Assembly (NCBI RefSeq): GCF_000003815.2
Contig: NC_049982.1
Span: 16,499,264-16,563,263 of the forward strand
Length of the DNA: 64,000 nucleotides
Direction: 5' to 3'
From: Branchiostoma floridae
Taxonomy: Eukaryota > Chordata > Leptocardii > Amphioxiformes > Branchiostomatidae
Shown piece after piece: positions 2,011 to 64,000 of the stretch. The notes beneath the pieces are model-generated. The model ran no database searches. It was not told the DNA's origin and saw nothing but the letters and a program-made list of their open reading frames with translations. The position numbers were made by a program, and so were the translations under genes. Each line of letters begins with the position of its first letter. Position 1 is the first letter of the stretch.

Positions 2011-2015
2011 AAATT

Positions 2016-2510
2016 GTGGAATGTTACCTGTACCACACAGATTTTCAGCTAAGGTCCACTCTGTGTAAAATGAGGATAAGTGCTCATTCACTAGAAATAG
2101 AAAGGGGTAGGTACAAAAAACTTCCTGTTGACGAGAGAACATGTAATTATTGTTCAGGGAAAGCAGTGGAAGATGAACTACATTTTATTTGTCAATGTTC
2201 ATTTTACAATTCTGAAAGAAGAAAATTTTACCTTGAAATCAACAAAACTTTCCCAAGATTCTCACACCTTACCGACCAACAAAAAACAATCTTTTTGCTT
2301 AAGTCGTCTATAAAATGTTGGACAATTCATCTCAAGTACAGAAAAGAAGTCAAACCCATCGAATAGCTTAAGTAGAAATAGATTTAGAATAGAAATTATT
2401 TCCCGCTCATCTATAAATATCATGTTCCTTCTTTGTTAAGTATACAATTATGTATACCACGCTGTTTGAAATTAGCCTTCGGGCATGAGCTTGCAATAAA
2501 GATTATTATC
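2016..2510 (+). mobile_element. LINE (non-LTR retrotransposon) 3' end, truncated
   Basis: An open frame of about 116 codons ends at 2366. It reads LRSTLCKMRISAHSLEIERG, then CNYC, then VEDELHFICQC. This is the hallmark end of many invertebrate LINE polyproteins: a basic 'RISAHSLEIE-RGRY' segment, then a zinc-knuckle-like C-x2-C...H-x4-C motif. The reverse transcriptase and endonuclease parts are missing, so the copy is 5'-truncated and inactive. After the stop, the 3' untranslated part runs to an AATAAA at 2495-2500 and AT-rich sequence near 2510, which I take as the element end. Family recognition is confident at the level of non-LTR element; the clade (CR1/L2-like or other) is not determined. 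Confidence 0.7.
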
Positions 2511-33984: not shown

Positions 33985-34386
<402 letters not shown>

Positions 34387-44656: not shown

Positions 44657-46906
44657 ATGGTAACCACAGTCCAGCAGTTAGCGAAGAAGGGTACGTACAA
44701 TATGATATCACAGTTTTAGTAAAGTTAACCGAAGCTGCTGTATGGACGCAGAATCTTTGCAGGAAAAAAATTAATGAAGGTCAAACCTATAGTTTACAAC
44801 TGAGTCCTTGTTCTAAGTTTTCTGACTCAAGATTCAATCGTTAGTTGTAGTTTACTATTTAGAAATTGACATAACGTTACTGCATAGTGTAACTGTTACC
44901 TTGCGCTACGTTACGTTTGGTTCCTTTTACTATCATGGTTAACACTATGACCTTCTGCAGGACTCAAGGGGTCCCGTTACATGCTTCGTCACAAGGACCC
45001 TGGTGGATATTAGCATCTCTTGCATATCTGTCGTAACATAAGCTAAGACATGTTTTTACCAGGAAGGCAGGCACATACACCTATTAAATCAACCCGATGT
45101 ACCTGATAATTTTCTGTCCCATATGCAGACGTGACGTTTGTGTACCACGCCCAGGACGTGGAGCTGGTCAGGTTTCTGGTGTTCTCCGTGGAGAGCCAAA
45201 ACTACAGCACTCTCTTCAGACACCGAGATGTCGTCATCCGACCTGATCAGTCGATCACGGACTGGACGGAAAAGAGCACGCGGAACTCCCGCGTCATCGT
45301 CGTCATCATTTCTCATTCTTTCATACGTTGGGACGGGCTACTCGATTTGGAAATTGCCATGGTAACGGCGGCACAAAGTCGGGACAAGCTGGTGGTTGCA
45401 GTGATCTGTAAGGGGTGTGAACAGCCAGCTCTCCTATCGGCGGCCAGAACTGTTTCGTTCTACGGAGATTTTGACCGACTTAAAGGAGATCTGCTGAAGG
45501 TCATCCAAGGACATGTGAGTAACCTAAGTAACACCGAATGGTATTTCACAGTTTTAGGCTATGCATATTATTGTATTCGTACAAAACTTATTGCCTGCGT
45601 TGGATTAACTTTCATTGAGGTCTATTTCCCCAAGTTGGTGTACTATGACAGAAAGCGACTCAAGTTTGAGTCTTACTCCCCAGTGCAGTCGTTTCGTACA
45701 GCACTAGTACTATACACTATATCACAGTATTTTAGTATAGCTAATATCTGGTATTCAAACGAGTCCCATCAGACTTTATAATAATCCAAGAAGTTAATCA
45801 ACTTATGTTCCTGAAATGAAATCCCTTCTTTCAGATACCAAGTAGCCAGTCGTCGGCGGAGAGGGTGTGCGAATCTCAGCCTATCCCTGGGTTATCGCCT
45901 TCCAGGCCGCGACAGTGGGTGAGTACAACGTTTGCCAAGGGCATATTACTGACATGATATGTACTGTCGTTCTGTCATAGCGTTTTATGTTCATGAATCG
46001 AGAGCAAAACATGTAGGAAGAAAGCTAGGAGGCAAATCACAACCATGAGAACAATGCAAATATAGTGAGGATTGTTATAATTTTACACTACCATTCGGCT
46101 ATTTACGTTCTGAATTATCGTTAAATGCGGCTCAGTCTGCCCATAGATGATTTACTCCAGTCTTTGTACCCCAGGACATAAGCTTGTTAGAGGAAGACGT
46201 GCTGTGTCACATCCAGCTGGGGGTAATAACAGCTCTGCGACCAGCGGACATTGCCGACAAGATGCGGTACATCGTGCGATCCTCCAGAGATCGGAGCTTC
46301 TTCACGTTCTGCGGAACAGCCATCATGAACACGGCCACCTTAACCCTGGCCCTGCTGCTGCTAGCTTTAGTTTCCGATGGTCTAGGATACCCCTTGTTCG
46401 GTGTCCACCCGGTACACATGATTTTTCTGGTGTTCCCATTGTTTAAGGCTTTATACTGCTTCCAGCTGATTGTGACGTATAGATACAAGATTGTGGCCAT
46501 GTACAAGTGCTGTAGGTCTGGTAGGGAAAATCAGGTGCCCGATATCATTGATACACTAGTCCGCACAGCAAATACGTCATACAGATCAGTCCGAAATTGC
46601 GTCATCACTGTCCTAGCCGGAGAGATAGCAATTTGGGCAGTCATTGCCAATGTCTCCCTCGCTCAGGGACATAACATCAAAGGTATCACACAGCTTCTGG
46701 ATATGTATCCCTTCACCGTTCTACCCTTTTCTGTCTTCTTGATTCACACGTGTTATGTGGCCGCACACTTGTTGTTTTATCATGACCCGACCATTCGGAC
46801 CCTGATAAGGGACCAGAGGTTTTACTTCGAAGAGATCATGAAAGATCCAGACTTCCATAAACACCACAAAACATTGGAGTTTTACCTCAGTAGACTGCAT
46901 CTATAG
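44657..46906 (+). CDS. TIR-domain protein with C-terminal four-TM domain (paralog 1)
   Basis: Exons: 44657-44690, 45129-45514, 45835-45918 and 46175-46906 (TAG). Donors are GTACGT, GTGAGT and GTGAGT, acceptors are CAG, and intron phases are 1, 0, 0. The product is 411 residues. TIR domain, residues 12-137: box 1 DVTFVYH; BB-loop region RHRDVVIRP (42-50); SRVIVVIISHSFI (65-77); and E86 in LDLEIAMVTA, the position of the catalytic Glu of TIR NADases such as SARM1 and of the WCxxE in Toll/IL-1R TIRs. Residues 141-168 are a Ser/Pro linker. Predicted TM segments: 213-234, 248-270, 310-331, 349-371. Between TM2 and TM3 lies a basic loop with MYKCC (277-281). The tail has HTCYVAAHLLFYHDPT and DPDFHKHH. 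Four passes put the TIR and C-terminus on the same, presumably cytosolic, side. The ATG at 44657 has a purine at -3 and G at +4, but the 11-residue first exon is the least certain part. A role in innate signalling or NAD cleavage is inferred from the TIR only. Confidence 0.85.
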
Positions 46907-47228
46907 GAACATGCGACATGTAGGGTATACTATGTTTGGGTAACATCACTGCAAGTTTAATTGCGAACATTGTTAATCATATCATTAAGTGTTAGTTACT
47001 ATCAAAAATGATATTGATAAACGTTAGATTTCATCAACACCATGGCATTTGGTTATGAAAACTCATGATCATGGTTTGTTTTGTAACATGAATTTTAGGC
47101 ACATGCCATGTAACGTCAACAAGTTAATTACGAAACTTCATTAGGCATATAGCTCGTAAACGTTGGCCGCACGCGTGTATTGAGACAAAAAATGTATTGT
47201 ACAAAGGTAGCAAAAACTTCAGTTAACA

Positions 47229-47234
47229 AATAAA
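47229..47234 (+). promoter_or_regulatory. Polyadenylation signal of TIR paralog 1
   Basis: AATAAA 323 bp after the TAG at 46904-46906, followed by a GT-rich stretch (GTGTGAGTGAGTCC) as expected for a downstream element. Confidence 0.6.
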
Positions 47235-48846
47235 AGTGTCAGATTGCAGAAATTCCGTGTGAGTGAGTCCGTTATCAATAACGTTGCATTACGCTTATGG
47301 TCCCATGGCAATTAGGCGACGGCCTTCGAACTTTTAACATTTAATATATGCAAGCCTCCAACAAGTAACGTTACCCGCCACCCGTCAAATTACTGTAAAT
47401 GGCACAATCGCGACTTGCAGTTTTTAAGCATTACACCTGGCATCAAAAGGGTGGAATCTGTGATATTCACCACGGCTTCCTGTTGGAAATACCCAACAAA
47501 TACAAATATCTGGCATATTGGGGCTTCCCCCTCGAGGTGACGAAGCCTCGAAGGCACGAGGTAATCTTCCACTGATCACGCCACACTTGGCGCCGATCAC
47601 GCAACTAGATTTCAGGTGAACTGGGCTTGACCAATCAACAAACAGGTGGCACGTGTAACAGGTAGCATAACATTCAAGCAAACCTCATACATTCATGTGC
47701 GAACCGCCAAGCTGAAAAGAGTGTCGTATGGTGAATCACATGTAAGAATCTTGTAACGACCAATTGTCCAAAGTTTAATGGTCGTTGCTAATATTTACGT
47801 GACCTGAGGTTACCTGTGTGCGACTGAGTGCCGGGCCGAAGACGTCACCATTTCCGTGTTTCCGTGGTACACACACGACTCCGGGGCGCAGGGTATGTCC
47901 ACTATCCCTGACCACATACAACGGGAGGCAGACAGAGCAACAGGTGAAGCAACAGGTCAGTGATATCAGCCGCTGAATAGCTTTACATGTCAAAATCTTG
48001 AATGCCATGATATAGCGCGCCAATACAATCGCCAAAACTTCAGGGTAACTTGTTGTGTTACCGATATGTATCTCCGACAAAACGTTGTTAACGTTATTTC
48101 TATTGATTGACATGTGCAACTATCACTGTAAACGCCTAGTGTATGATAAGAAAGTCAGGAATTTTTGTGTAACTGCTGGGTTGCCCGTATTATTTAAAAT
48201 TTAAACCACCACAGCTTGTGTAAAGGCACACCCTGGCAGCTCCCACCACACACCTGTGTTTGTAAATAAAGGCACGTGACTGTCGGGATTTTACCTTCCC
48301 AGAATTCCTGCAACAAAACATTACGTCATGTCCCACTGTAGGACAGGTATTTACAGGTGGCTGTAACGACAACTTCTTTTTTGGTGGGGGGAGTGACTTA
48401 AAGTTTTGATTTTTTAAGGGGGGTGGGAGATTTAAACATGGACAATTTAGCAATGAAAGTTAGGGTGTAATCAATTTCCATAAACTGTGTCGTACTGCTT
48501 TGTTGTGTTCCAAGTGTGTGTGTTACTTGATAACTGCCCCCTTACACCTCTGCTGGAGTATTTACACATTTTTAGCTTTCCAAAAATGTAAAAACGTCAT
48601 GGGCATTCACATAAGCAAAACAGCCAAGAAACATTGATGTCAAATTGTCATCAGTCAACAGTTTCTGCATTATTCAGCCATTACCTTTATCTGCCAAATT
48701 CCAAAGTTTGTGAGTTAGCTATAAAACCAATGCTATTACCAATATCAAGTGAAATGATCAGTTTCAAAATGTCAGGCTATCAAATTTTGCAAAGCACTTA
48801 TAAAGTTGGCATACTTAGCAGCTTCCCTTACTCCTCCTGTGTGCAG
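47235..48846. other. Spacer between the TIR paralogs; missing first exon of paralog 2 expected here
   Basis: The second TIR gene enters its first visible exon in phase 1, so a short 5' exon ending with one extra base should lie upstream, as in paralog 1. I could not pick it with confidence. CpG content is ordinary up to about 48.3 kb and drops after about 48.45 kb. That places the likely promoter at roughly 47.8-48.4 kb. Confidence 0.45.
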
Positions 48847-51835
48847 GTGACCACCTGTATGATGTCACCTTCATCTATCATGACAAGGATCTGGACTTTG
48901 TGGTCCAGGCTGTGAGATACATCGAGCAACAGCAAGGCCTTAGGATCTACTATCGACACCGTGACTCTTCAGGGCCCATACTGAACAACATGGTCTACAG
49001 TATCCAGAATAGTTGTATTACTGTTGCAATCATCTCCCAGAATTTTCTGGAGGATACATTGCGTGACTATGAGCTACAGCTAGCAATCCTCACTGCTGTG
49101 AAACATGGACAGGGGTGTTTGCCGATTCTCCTTGACAACTGCAGAATTCCTGCAACATTGGAAACTATCGAAACGCATAAATACTGCAGGAGCACAGAGT
49201 TTAAGGGGCTCAACAGCCTAGTTAAAGTCCACCTGAGCAATGTAAGTCAGTCTCATTATGTCATCAAGTATATAGTTTGTATTGATCATACAAGGTTCTA
49301 CAAAAATCTAATTAATCTATGAAACAAAGTTTTTATAACATTGTTCTGAATTTCTCAAAGAACACAACTTCAAAATTACCCTTTCATTAATATGTTGGAA
49401 TATAACTGCTATATTTTTTCCTATACATATTTCTTTTGCTCACCAGGTAAGAAGAAGGCTGGAGCTTCAAAGGACTATGTACACTCAAGGAGAAACTGCA
49501 GAACGGACTGTTGCAGATGTGCATAGGCAGTCCTGCTTCCCCCATCCTCTCTCACAGAGGGTTGATACACAGGTAATATTTTAGCACTCCATCAACTAGT
49601 GCTCCATATTCATAGTTGTAATTTATAGGTGTTGTGTCATGACATGAACGTACCACTAATGTCAGCTTAATTTCAGAAGGGTGATGGGTCTACATAATTA
49701 GGACTGGAGGAGGAGACAAGAGTGTTGGTCAGAGGAGGGTCTTCATTGACGACAAACAGTGGATATACTTCACCAGGGGATTGAGATGGGGGTTTGGTCA
49801 ACAGAAAATATATAACCTCAGTTAGCATTGATGCTATTAGCCCAAATCTGAGGTGGTAAGTAGAACATGATACAGCACATTAGGAGCTGTGTTAGCACAA
49901 AAAGTTGGTTTGATTCCACTGTCTTTTTGAAACTTAAACTACGCATAGTAAATTACTTGAATAACTAAAATGTAATATAACTGACAGATGTGTCTTCATT
50001 TGACAGCTTGCTAATGCAGCTTGACCTCCAACTGATTCTTGAATATCTATAATTCTCCAGGCTCTGAAGGGAATGATCATCCATGAAGTGTGGTACCTGT
50101 TGTTCTTGATAGTGTTCCACATAAAGATGGTCACAAGGGGTCTTCCTGAAGGTAAGGGTTGATACAGGCAAAATACAGATAACAGTGCCCAGGGTTTACA
50201 TTAGTTGCAAAATGTAGGTGCATTGTATGTTCAACTAGAGTTTGGCGACCTCATACCTCCATGAATATTAAGAGCTTTTGTAAATTTCATGCAATTAATT
50301 GACATTAACATAATCTATGCATGGTGTTGGTCATCATTGACTTATGTACACATGTCACAATAATAAAATAAAAAAAATCATTAATCATAAAGAGGTTTTG
50401 CAATTTTTACATAAATTATGCAAATAAGTTCCTAATTACCATATAAGTGTTACATTTATTGAAGTCCAGTTATATTGCAAACAATGGAATTATACAATTT
50501 CCTCATTAATTATGCAAATTAATTTCTCATTTGCATAACATGCATATTATTATGAACACCTTTGCCCAAGCTACTTGCATGCCTAAAATGATGTCAATCC
50601 GTCAATCCTTTCTGCCGTTATCCTCTTTGGAATGTCTTGACAAAAAAAAGCCCCTGCAGTTCCAAAATGAAATGTTAGGGGGCTGAAACCTGCCCCACTT
50701 TGTCATGACACTGCAAGCTATCTACCACCCAAATGTCAGGACCATATCACGTCCAGGACAAGAGATACATGGAAGAAACTGAGATGATAGAATATTGTCA
50801 TTAATTATGCAAATGTTTTGACATTTCATGGAGATAATAATAAGAAAGAGGCTGCCCTAGATATAGGTGTTTAATGAAGGTCTGGTATCTGGTGATGGCA
50901 TATGAGCAGATAACCAGAATGAAATCCCAGACATAACCATATTCATGCATGATATATCCCAATCATTGACTCACTTGTTTACTCTAACTCTTAGGTAAAA
51001 TAATGATTTACTCCTACATGACACGACACTGTAACAATCAGTGCGATGACAAAATCTTGTTCACCTTGTAGGGAGATACGGAACTTGTAACGGCCTTGGC
51101 TGGTTGCACAATGGCTCCCGCTGTGTAATGTCTCTCCTGCAGTCAGCATACATGTGTCTGCAGGTAGCATGTAAGACTGCAATGGCACCCCTACACTTGG
51201 TATGGGCCCAGGTCTTCCGCCAACCTGAAGATTCCAGTCTTATGACTTACATAGGGATGCATCTGTACAACAGTACAAATATCTTAGTTCTTATACTTGT
51301 CTTTCACATAGTTTGGCACAATAACTATTCATTACTTAGTTTGAACAGTACATTTCTCATTGTCCCTTTTGTGAAAGGCCACTTCTGTGGTCAGCATACC
51401 TCAGCCTATCGGAAAAAACTCAAACAAATGTATGAGTGTTGCAAGAAAATCAGAAAGAAGAAGACAAGAGCAGAGTTGAGAAGATGTTTATTCTCTGCCA
51501 AGACTAGCTATACCAATGTGCGGAACTGTATCATAGCATCATTAGGATATGAACTGTTGCAATGGGCAGTCCTTGTGTATTGTACTGCCAAAGGAGTCTT
51601 TGATTTTACCACGCTTCCAACATTAAACACTTTTCAGCTGATCGTTTTGTTTCTCCACACATGTTATCTTGTTGCGCATTTATGGCTCTACTACCATGAC
51701 TCTACTATGTATACCCTCATAGAAAAAAACAGATTTCACTATCCAGAATTGATGGAGGACAGTAATTTTCACATTTATCATGTAGAATTGATGAATTTTG
51801 TGTCTTGGTATTATGACAAGGGACAGTTCAAGTAA
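48847..51835 (+). CDS. TIR-domain protein with C-terminal four-TM domain (paralog 2, 5' exon missing)
   Basis: Exons: 48847-49241, 49447-49572 and 51143-51835 (TAA), about 404 residues plus an unseen short first exon. Entry phase is 1 and later phases are 0 and 0, as in paralog 1. The TIR half begins DHLYDVTFIYHDKDLD and has YYRHRDSSGP (BB loop), SCITVAIISQNFL and DYELQLAILTA, with the conserved Glu. A 42-residue linker follows. The membrane half aligns with paralog 1: MYECCKK (MYKCCRS), TSYTNVRNCIIASLGYELLQ (TSYRSVRNCVITVLAGEIAI), HTCYLVAHLWLYYHDST and DSNFHIYH. It also has four hydrophobic segments. The loop after MYECC is very basic (KKIRKKKTR). Exon 3 starts six residues later than its counterpart. 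Intron 3 (1.57 kb) contains a dispersed repeat and an exon-like segment at 50061-50152. CpG is strongly depleted relative to paralog 1. Function is inferred from TIR homology only. Confidence 0.83.
50061..50152 (+). other. Possible alternative (stop-bearing) exon in intron 3 of TIR paralog 2
   Basis: The segment is preceded by an acceptor ending ATTCTCCAG and followed by the near-consensus donor AAG|GTAAGG. Read in the phase of the preceding exon, it gives 29 codons (starting ALKGMIIHEVWYLFVL) and then TGA at 50148-50150. Inclusion would end the protein after TIR plus linker, without the membrane domain, or trigger nonsense-mediated decay. Splice sites like these also occur by chance, so this is speculative. 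Confidence 0.3.
50233..50841. repeat. Interspersed non-autonomous repeat, copy 3
   Basis: Starts AACTAGAGTTTGGCGACCTC followed by ATACCTCCATGAA. It is collinear with 11428-12020 (for example ATGCATGGTGTTGGTCATCA against ATGCATTGTGTTGTTCATCA). It ends ACATTTCATGGAGATAATAA, so terminal inverted repeats are kept. It lacks the second internal repeat seen in copy 1. It sits in the same orientation as the host gene, within intron 3 of TIR paralog 2. Confidence 0.75.
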
Positions 51836-52520: not shown

Positions 52521-52526
52521 AATAAA
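52521..52526 (+). promoter_or_regulatory. Candidate polyadenylation signal of TIR paralog 2
   Basis: AATAAA about 690 bp after the TAA at 51833-51835, followed within 30 bp by a T/GT-rich stretch (GTTGCTTTTGTCTTT). An A-rich AT stretch lies between. I see no earlier perfect AATAAA after the stop. Confidence 0.5.
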
Positions 52527-53023: not shown

Positions 53024-53960
53024 GAACAACAGGTCTGTCCTTGGTGCTGAACACTCCACGTATAAGAACAGGTCAGTTCTTGGTGCTGAACACTATCCAC
53101 ATATAAGAACAGGTCAGTTCTTGGTGCTGAGCACTGTCCACATAAGAACAAGTCTGTCCTTGGTGCTGAACACTATCCACATATAAGAACAGGTCAGTTC
53201 TTGGAGCTGAACACTATCCACATATAAGAACAGGTCAGTTCTTGGTGCTGAGCACTGTCCACATAAGAACAAGTCTGTCCTTGGTGCTGAACACTATCCA
53301 CATACAACAACAGGTCAGTTCTTGGTGCTGAACACTATCCACACATAAGAACAAGTCTGTCCTTGGTGCTGAATGCTGTCCACACAAATGAACAGGTCTG
53401 TCCTTGGTGCTGAACACTCCACGTATAAGAACAGGTCAGTTCTTGGAGCTGAACACTATCCACATATAAGAACAGGTCAGTTCTTGGAGCTGAACACTAT
53501 CCACATATAAGAACAGGTCAGTTCTTGGTGCTGAGCACTGTCCACATAAGAACAAGTCTGTCCTTGGTGCTGAACACTATCCACATACAACAACAGGTCA
53601 GTTCTTGGTGCTGAGCACTGTCCACATATAAGAACAAGTCTGTCCTTGGTGCTGAATGCTGTCCACACAAATGAACAGGTCTGTCCTTGGTGCTGAACAC
53701 TCCACGCATAAGAACAGGTCAGTTCTTGGTGCTGAATACTATCAACATATAAGAACAGGTCAGTCATTTGTGCTGAGCACTGTCCACGTAAGAACAAGTC
53801 TGTCCTTGGTGCTGAACACTATCCACATATAACAACAGGTCAGTTCTTGGTGCTGAACACTATCCACACATAAGAACAAGTCCCTCCTTGGTGCTGAATG
53901 CTGTCCACACATAGGTTTGTCCTTGGTACTGAGCACTATCCACACATAAGAACAGAACCT
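53024..53960. repeat. About 40-bp minisatellite with higher-order repeats
   Basis: About 23 tandem units of the form AACAGGTCAGTTCTTGGTGC followed by TGAACACTATCCACATATAAG. There are variant classes: GTCTGTCCTTGG against GTCAGTTCTTGG, and CACTCCACG against CACTATCCACA. The variant GAATGCTGTCCACACAAATG recurs at 53371 and 53653, 282 bp apart, and a close form recurs at 53896. The same neighbours flank the first two, so blocks of about seven units were duplicated together. Long minus-strand open frames (repeats of the type VDSVQHQELTC) exist only because the unit lacks stops in some frames. Confidence 0.95.
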
Positions 53961-63448: not shown

Positions 63449-64000
63449 CAAGGTACCTATCAGTACAGAAAAATGTCCCCAATAGCAATATAAACATCAT
63501 GTTTGCTGACATGGTCAGCATAATACCCAATGGACTTGAGCCTTTTTTATTATCATAATATGTTAACACCTCTTACAGGTAAGCCTTATCCTTTCTCAAA
63601 ATAGTTAAAAGTACATGTAGTGAGATTAAAACAGTCATGCAAGCTGTCAAAAATACTTCCAGCACATTATTTCTGTGCATGTCTCTTACCTTAGGACTAC
63701 TAGTAATGCCAGCTCCTTGCACTAAGTTAAAAAAAGTAATTTCCTGGGTTGAAAGAGCAGGAAATTACAATCATTTCAGGCGAACTGCACGATGAAGACA
63801 ACAAAGGTCTGCTGACATTAGCAAGAGGGCTTTCAACTGCATCTAATGTAATCCATTCAGTGATGGTATCTGGCAAAATAAAGGCCATGAAATGCAGTTG
63901 ACAGCTCTGGTGTGTGCTTGTAGACCTTTGTGCCTACACTGTCTCATTAGCAAGCAAAATATAGCCTCACTGTAATCATCAAAATCTAATATTCATGATC
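63445..64000. other. CpG-poor non-coding DNA at window end
   Basis: Nothing recognised. A gene may continue beyond the window. Confidence 0.4.

What the first reader, a model, noticed from the sequence alone, without database searches (positions are those of the whole stretch)
44657..51835. Tandem gene pair with an unusual architecture: N-terminal TIR domain fused to a C-terminal four-TM domain
Both genes encode TIR, then a 28-42-residue linker, then about 230-243 residues with four hydrophobic segments. Exon order and intron phases (1, 0, 0) agree. The membrane halves share TSY-x2-VRNC, MY-x-CC, HTCY-x2-AHL-x2-Y-(x)-HD-x-T-x2-TLI and D-x2-FH-x2-H, so the fusion predates the duplication. Toll/IL-1 receptors have the opposite order and a single TM. 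TIR-STING proteins have a CDN-binding domain after the TM region, which is absent here. I know no described family with this layout. It would be a membrane-anchored cytosolic TIR without a receptor ectodomain.
Basis: partly seen in the sequence, partly recalled or inferred. Interest (0 to 1): 0.88.

Follow-up and report, generated by a model that had tools for sequence, protein, structure and literature searches.

The report
Membrane-anchored TIR gene pair, probably amphioxus
Two neighbouring genes, probably from the sea animal amphioxus, each join an immune-signalling TIR domain to an unknown membrane domain with about four membrane-crossing segments; the combination looks old and maintained, but what it does has not been tested.

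Summary
Two tandem genes (44657-46906, 47895-51835) each encode a TIR exon, a short linker exon and an exon for a hydrophobic half of 243 or 230 residues. Both TIR exons pass Pfam's cut-off; splice sites are GT-AG with phases 1, 0, 0. The membrane halves are 31% identical (E 1e-37). Third codon positions are at chance while second positions are kept, so both fusions look maintained since an old duplication. The TIRs are sisters in a tree of 54 TIRs from the same genome; their nearest sampled relative is a Death+TIR gene, without strong support. The membrane half has no convincing match in the libraries searched and was found at only these two places in the host genome. Best reading: a membrane-embedded TIR adaptor or decoy in Toll-type signalling, without ectodomain or Death domain; direction and organelle unknown.

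The parts
44657..44690 (+). gene 1 exon 1: start codon and 11 residues, phase-1 donor
   Evidence: open spliced frame, in-frame stop 69 bases upstream
45129..45514 (+). gene 1 exon 2: TIR domain
   Evidence: PF13676 38.2 bits, cut-off 28
45835..45918 (+). gene 1 exon 3: 28-residue linker, phase 0 on both sides
   Evidence: splice sites and frame
46175..46906 (+). gene 1 exon 4: membrane half, 243 aa, four hydrophobic segments (protein residues 216-238, 249-270, 310-331, 349-370, bounds set by eye), stop codon included
47229..47234 (+). AATAAA polyadenylation-like signal after gene 1
47895..47955 (+). gene 2 exon 1, phase-1 donor
   Evidence: in-frame stop 90 bases upstream
48847..49241 (+). 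gene 2 exon 2: TIR domain
   Evidence: PF13676 36.2 bits, cut-off 28; PDB matches to Toll-receptor-related 2, TIRAP, TLRs
49447..49572 (+). gene 2 exon 3: 42-residue linker, phase 0 on both sides
50061..50151 (+). possible extra exon of gene 2 (30 residues, hydrophobic core), phase 0 to 1, in frame with an acceptor at 51072; unproven
   Evidence: open alternative model; no Pfam match; elsewhere in the genome one weak match, E 0.26, opposite frames that read by eye like a carboxypeptidase
51143..51835 (+). gene 2 exon 4: membrane half, 230 aa, three clear hydrophobic segments and one marginal one, stop codon included
   Evidence: 31% identical to gene 1 exon 4, E 1e-37; hydropathy
52521..52526 (+). 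AATAAA polyadenylation-like signal, 686 bases after gene 2's stop codon

Best explanation
The pair encodes membrane-embedded TIR signalling proteins. The TIR faces the cytosol and belongs to the TLR/TIRAP/MyD88 branch of animal TIRs. About four C-terminal helices hold it on a membrane, with both ends and the long, positively charged loop between helices 2 and 3 in the cytosol. It most likely acts on TLR-MyD88-type TIR assembly at that membrane through TIR-TIR contacts: as a sorting or scaffolding adaptor (as TIRAP and TRAM do by lipid anchoring, recalled) or as a decoy that ties up other TIRs, since it has no Death domain to pass the signal on. Shown by sequence: TIR identity, fusion order in two copies, conservation, no ectodomain or Death domain in the models. 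Inferred: topology, membrane address, partners. The sign of the effect is open; the missing Death domain slightly favours inhibition.
For: TIRs pass Pfam. Gene 2's TIR matches Hydra Toll-receptor-related 2 (3e-6), TIRAP (2e-5) and TLR15/TLR2 (7e-5) in the PDB; the two-row profile matches TRR-2 2e-6, TLR15/TLR2 2e-4, MyD88 0.003. In the 54-row tree the pair is one clade (99/93), next to L028 (89/79); each copy alone still joins L028 when the other is removed (93/83, 83/80). L028 has a Death-domain frame about 1.2 kb upstream of its TIR on the same strand (PF00531, 23.5 bits, cut-off 22.6), MyD88's domain order. Charge pattern fits TIR-in: loops 1 and 3 carry 0-1 K+R, loop 2 carries 8 and 15. 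Identity is highest in helix 4 (10 of 22), tail (16 of 41) and loop 2 (14 of 39), lowest in loop 3 (2 of 17) and helix 1 (3 of 23). 6 of 7 cysteines of gene 1's membrane half are kept, MYxCC in loop 2 among them; that it is palmitoylated is a guess. Amphioxus bbtTIRC and bbtTIRA are reported to inhibit MyD88 and TICAM signalling (PMC6043800, passage seen).
Against: No expression, localisation or interaction data. Gene 1's TIR alone matches no PDB chain to E 1. The TIRs are long-branched; treekit warns that the join to L028 may be false, and no join to L028 reaches its 95/80 mark. By BLAST, gene 2's best matches in the set are two TLR-length frames (L034, L027) ahead of L028. L028 itself is not clearly MyD88: its Death frame best matches RIPK1 (1e-5), then ankyrin and FADD, with no MyD88 listed to E 1, and its TIR matches TLR15/TLR2 (2e-17) far better than MyD88 (8e-7). 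Gene 2's TIR is shorter after HRD, where the BB loop lies (alignment; loop placement recalled), so classical contacts may be altered. The membrane half might be the active part.
Confidence: 0.45

Rival explanations
1. The four-helix half is a sensor, channel or enzyme of an internal membrane and the TIR is its output, a functional analogue of STING: a lipid, metal or small molecule changes the helices and clusters the TIRs.
For: The membrane half keeps residues that a passive anchor would not obviously need: helix 4 and the cytosolic tail share HTCYxxAHL..YHDxTxxTLI and DxxFHxxH; 5 of 11 histidines and 6 of 7 cysteines of gene 1's half are kept. Both ends and the helix 2-3 loop in the cytosol is also STING's layout (recalled).
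Confidence: 0.2
2. The TIR is an NAD-consuming effector held at a membrane, as in SARM1 or bacterial TIR effectors.
For: A glutamate is kept in both copies at the alpha-C box (LDLEIAM, RDYELQL; role in NADase TIRs recalled). Weak ThsB match for gene 2 (0.018) and weak retron-TIR match (0.1).
Against: The same glutamate is present in the TLR15/TLR2 chain (alignment). The best matches are TRR-2, TLRs, TIRAP and MyD88; bacterial TIRs come lower (0.028 and weaker; 0.23 and weaker) and no SARM1 chain is listed.
Confidence: 0.1
3. The fusion is a gene-model artefact: the TIR and membrane exons belong to separate transcripts.
For: No RNA data; the linker exons differ in length and show little likeness and are phase 0 on both sides.
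Against: Same order and phases in two copies whose fourfold sites agree at only 4 of 23 and 2 of 13; TIR pairs with TIR and membrane half with membrane half.
Confidence: 0.06
4. Gene 2 really has five hydrophobic segments (extra exon 50061-50151), so its membrane half is oriented differently or the paralogs differ in function.
For: The 5-exon model is open with GT-AG sites, and the match with gene 1 reaches five residues upstream of the 51143 acceptor (tblastn from 51128).
Against: The gene 1 model has no such exon; no Pfam match and only one weak genome match of the exon outside the locus; a frame this short is often open by chance.
Confidence: 0.15

Closest known systems
MyD88 (Death-TIR adaptor)
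   Same: nearest sampled TIR lies in a locus with MyD88's domain order, Death then TIR; profile match to MyD88 0.003
   Different: no Death domain here; a membrane half after the TIR; the nearest locus itself does not best-match MyD88
TIRAP/Mal and TRAM (membrane-sorting TIR adaptors)
   Same: TIR likeness (gene 2: TIRAP 2e-5, TRAM 0.15); held at a membrane if the reading is right
   Different: those use a lipid-binding or myristoylated N-terminus (recalled), not several helices after the TIR
Metazoan TIR-STING (6wt6)
   Same: N-terminal TIR (residues 32-147 of 415) in a fusion protein
   Different: second half is a cyclic-dinucleotide receptor (recalled); no sequence match here
Toll-like and IL-1 receptors; Hydra TRR-2
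   Same: TIR family; TRR-2 is the top PDB match
   Different: receptors with an extracellular part and one helix before the TIR (PMC7075850 passage, for TLR and IL-1R)
Amphioxus bbtTIRA and bbtTIRC
   Same: amphioxus TIR proteins reported as inhibitors of TICAM and MyD88 signalling (PMC6043800 passage)
   Different: their sequences and layouts were not available for comparison

Membership tests
TIR domain superfamily | Pfam TIR/TIR_2 score over the curated cut-off | tested here: met
   38.2 and 36.2 bits for TIR_2 (28), 25.8 and 23.7 for TIR (21.3)
MyD88 | Death domain in the same protein | tested here: not met
   Pfam on exon-2 and exon-4 frames finds none; exon 1 and linker, 11-42 aa, were not scanned and are too short for one
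MyD88 | TIR groups with MyD88 TIRs | tested here: inconclusive
   joins the Death+TIR locus L028 at 89/79 with a long-branch warning; L028's own best PDB matches are not MyD88
TLR / IL-1R | ectodomain, one helix, then C-terminal TIR | tested here: not met
   TIR begins within about 25 residues of the start; the hydrophobic segments follow it; no signal-peptide program was run
STING / TIR-STING | cyclic-dinucleotide-binding domain | tested here: not met
   no Pfam STING match at E 1 and no PDB match to E 10 for either membrane half; 41-46 residues follow helix 4
SARM1-type NADase TIR | NADase activity | not testable with these tools
   sequence alone is ambiguous
TIRAP/TRAM-like sorting adaptor | membrane recruitment of MyD88 or TRIF to TLRs | not testable with these tools
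   function inferred from domain content only
conserved invertebrate TIR families (ecTIR-DC) | membership in one of the published families | not tested
   catalogue paper not held; three papers that use the term show no such layout in the passages seen

The most novel reading that the evidence does not exclude
An unrecognised class of intracellular membrane sensor in chordates: an orphan four-helix module that directly controls a Toll-branch TIR, so that signals arising inside a membrane enter the Toll pathway without any Toll-like receptor, a STING-like route built on a TIR.
Probability: 0.1. Interest if true: 0.85.

Novelty: new variant of a known kind. Interest (0 to 1): 0.55.

Why it matters
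As far as I recall, animal TIR proteins reach membranes through a single helix or a lipid anchor. A multi-helix half fused after a Toll-branch TIR, kept in two copies since an old duplication, would add a layout to the TIR repertoire and point to an unstudied membrane step in Toll signalling of an invertebrate chordate. The orphan membrane half is also a candidate new domain family.

Tried and rejected
Membrane half against Pfam, NCBIfam, PADLOC, PHROGs, PDB, viral contigs and GTDB genomes: no convincing relative. Judged chance: Pfam AHH 0.17, PADLOC PycTM 0.038 and DrmB 0.013, PHROGs 0.25 and 0.32, PDB profile best 0.25. The contig scans matched 34 and 157 stretches, none confirmed at 1e-3. 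A weak genome hit on C10 (0.256, two stops inside) was rejected; it lies among minus-strand frames that read by eye like cytochrome b561, and one such frame also scores weakly with the profile (9.5 bits, E 0.27), which I take for generic membrane composition. The best other profile value, 0.044, falls inside a TIR frame of L013. A window hit at 63513-63728 (E 0.43, 64% A+T) was not followed further. A recalled likeness of the extra exon to polycystins gained no support. The GTP_cyclohydro2 match of gene 2's TIR (17.5 bits, cut-off 23.3) is chance.

Other TIR-then-membrane layouts: 23 of 149 TIR_2 places were scanned 1.2-7.0 kb downstream for frames of 60 aa or more with at least two hydrophobic segments. 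15 such frames turned up at 10 places; 4 reach three segments, none four. By eye they are repeats, low-complexity or unrelated; the same test would give gene 2 only three, so this is a weak negative. 29 further places were seen with 1.5 kb flanks by the profile only; the rest were not fetched.

Full report
What is there. The window lies in a 513.4 Mb genome of 431 contigs with at least 149 places matching TIR_2 at E 0.01 (places, not genes, as some TIRs are split over exons). Two genes lie head to tail on the + strand. Gene 1 has exons 44657-44690, 45129-45514, 45835-45918 and 46175-46906 (411 aa). Gene 2 has exons 47895-47955, 48847-49241, 49447-49572 and 51143-51835 (424 aa). All introns are GT-AG, phases 1, 0, 0 in both. 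Each start follows an in-frame stop, and an AATAAA lies 323 and 686 bases after the stop codons.

TIR half. Both second exons pass the Pfam cut-offs for TIR_2 and TIR. Against the PDB, gene 1's TIR alone finds nothing to E 1. Gene 2's TIR finds Hydra Toll-receptor-related 2 (3e-6), TIRAP (2e-5), TLR15/TLR2 (7e-5), TRAM (0.15) and MyD88 (0.24). The profile of both finds TRR-2 (2e-6), TLR15/TLR2 (2e-4), TLR2 (0.003) and MyD88 (0.003).

A tree of 54 TIRs (the pair plus 52 of the other 147 places; the rest were not fetched) puts the pair together (99/93), with L028 next (89/79). treekit warned of long branches. With gene 1 left out, gene 2 joins L028 (93/83); with gene 2 left out, gene 1 does (83/80); with L028 left out, the pair stays together (99/88). 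None of the joins to L028 reaches treekit's 95/80 mark. By BLAST gene 1's best match is gene 2, then L028; gene 2's best matches are L034 and L027 (frames of 1113 and 1156 aa, TLR length), with L028 next. L028 carries a Death-domain frame (PF00531, 23.5 bits, cut-off 22.6) about 1.2 kb upstream of its TIR on the same strand, MyD88's domain order. But that Death frame best matches RIPK1 (1e-5), then ankyrin and FADD, in the PDB, with no MyD88 listed to E 1, and the L028 TIR is closer to TLR15/TLR2 (2e-17) than to MyD88 (8e-7). So 'Toll/TIRAP/MyD88 branch' is the safe statement; descent from MyD88 itself is not shown.

Membrane half. The two copies are 31% identical (70 of 228 columns, E 1e-37). 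Gene 1 has four clear hydrophobic segments; gene 2 has three and a marginal one (1.27), no better than TIR core windows (1.11-1.43). Shuffles show only modest excess, so the count of four rests on the alignment and the charge pattern as much as on hydropathy. K+R in the loops (bounds set by eye): loop 1, 0 and 0; loop 2, 8 and 15; loop 3, 1 and 1. This fits a cytosolic TIR, loop 2 and tail. Identity concentrates in helix 4 (10 of 22), tail (16 of 41) and loop 2 (14 of 39), on the side where the TIR would lie.

Age and selection. Identity at codon positions 1, 2, 3 is 0.438, 0.625, 0.272 over 224 codons of the membrane half and 0.459, 0.582, 0.262 over 122 of the TIR. At fourfold sites 4 of 23 and 2 of 13 agree. 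Third positions are at chance while second positions are kept, so both halves of both genes appear held by selection on the protein since an old duplication. With sisterhood of both halves this supports fusion before duplication and speaks against a model artefact.

Gene 2's alternative. An exon 50061-50151 with acceptor 51072 also gives an open frame and would add a hydrophobic segment. The match with gene 1 extends five residues upstream of the 51143 acceptor, which leans slightly towards it. Nothing else supports it. RNA would decide.

Distribution. In the same genome the membrane half was found only at these two places: gene 1's half at E 0.001, gene 2's half at E 10 with one further weak hit, rejected, and gene 2's last helix and tail at E 10. 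The tool scores only 2-5 candidates here, so distant copies could be missed. A profile search of 55 fetched loci, four of which hold the pair, found no other copy; the best other value is 0.044. A downstream scan of 23 TIR places gave no frame with four segments (limits under Tried and rejected). No relative was confirmed in viral contigs or GTDB genomes. Other animals could not be searched.

Literature. Ten searches listed no paper that I could recognise as describing a TIR followed by several helices; I saw titles, abstract starts and, for twelve papers, passages: PMC2575513 (20 of 28 TIR domain combinations in amphioxus specific to it), PMC5094078, PMC6043800, PMC9334734, PMC7075850 (one metazoan TIR group of diverse architectures; 46), PMC6836662, PMC8195603, PMC6321704, PMC5549309, PMC5730576, PMC6040629, PMC8204762. 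So 'undescribed' means not met in what I could search; predicted gene models for this locus very likely exist in public annotation.

Mechanism. A Toll-branch TIR without Death domain or ectodomain, fixed to a membrane by several helices, is best read as a local organiser or decoy for TIR assembly. In amphioxus, TIR proteins bbtTIRC and bbtTIRA are reported to restrain MyD88 and TICAM signalling, so such a role has precedent. The kept cysteines and histidines of loop 2, helix 4 and tail leave room for palmitoylation or sensing. None of this has been tested.

Verdict. A real, apparently old and maintained fusion with an orphan membrane half: a new variant of TIR signalling proteins. Interest 0.55.

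Noticed in passing
window 50061-50151 and 51072: A short hydrophobic frame with GT-AG splice sites sits in gene 2's third intron and would add a fifth hydrophobic segment.
   Followed up: partly
L028 (C15:13069016-13069354, minus strand): Death-domain frame about 1.2 kb upstream of a TIR exon; MyD88's domain order, but the Death frame best matches RIPK1 and the TIR best matches TLR15/TLR2.
   Followed up: partly
L050, about 0.8 kb after the TIR: A 1411-residue open frame follows the TIR; it reads like an NB-ARC-type NTPase (by eye, no library run), perhaps the TIR-NB-ARC hybrid that PMC2575513 mentions.
   Followed up: no
window 2013-2366: Frame that reads like the C-terminal part of a LINE-type reverse transcriptase (by eye; Pfam gave only a sub-threshold DUF2039 match).
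   Followed up: no
window 53028-53955: Minisatellite, 41-base unit about 23 copies with longer periods of 121 and 283 bases.
   Followed up: no
window 33988-34365: GACT tetranucleotide array of about 94 copies.
   Followed up: no
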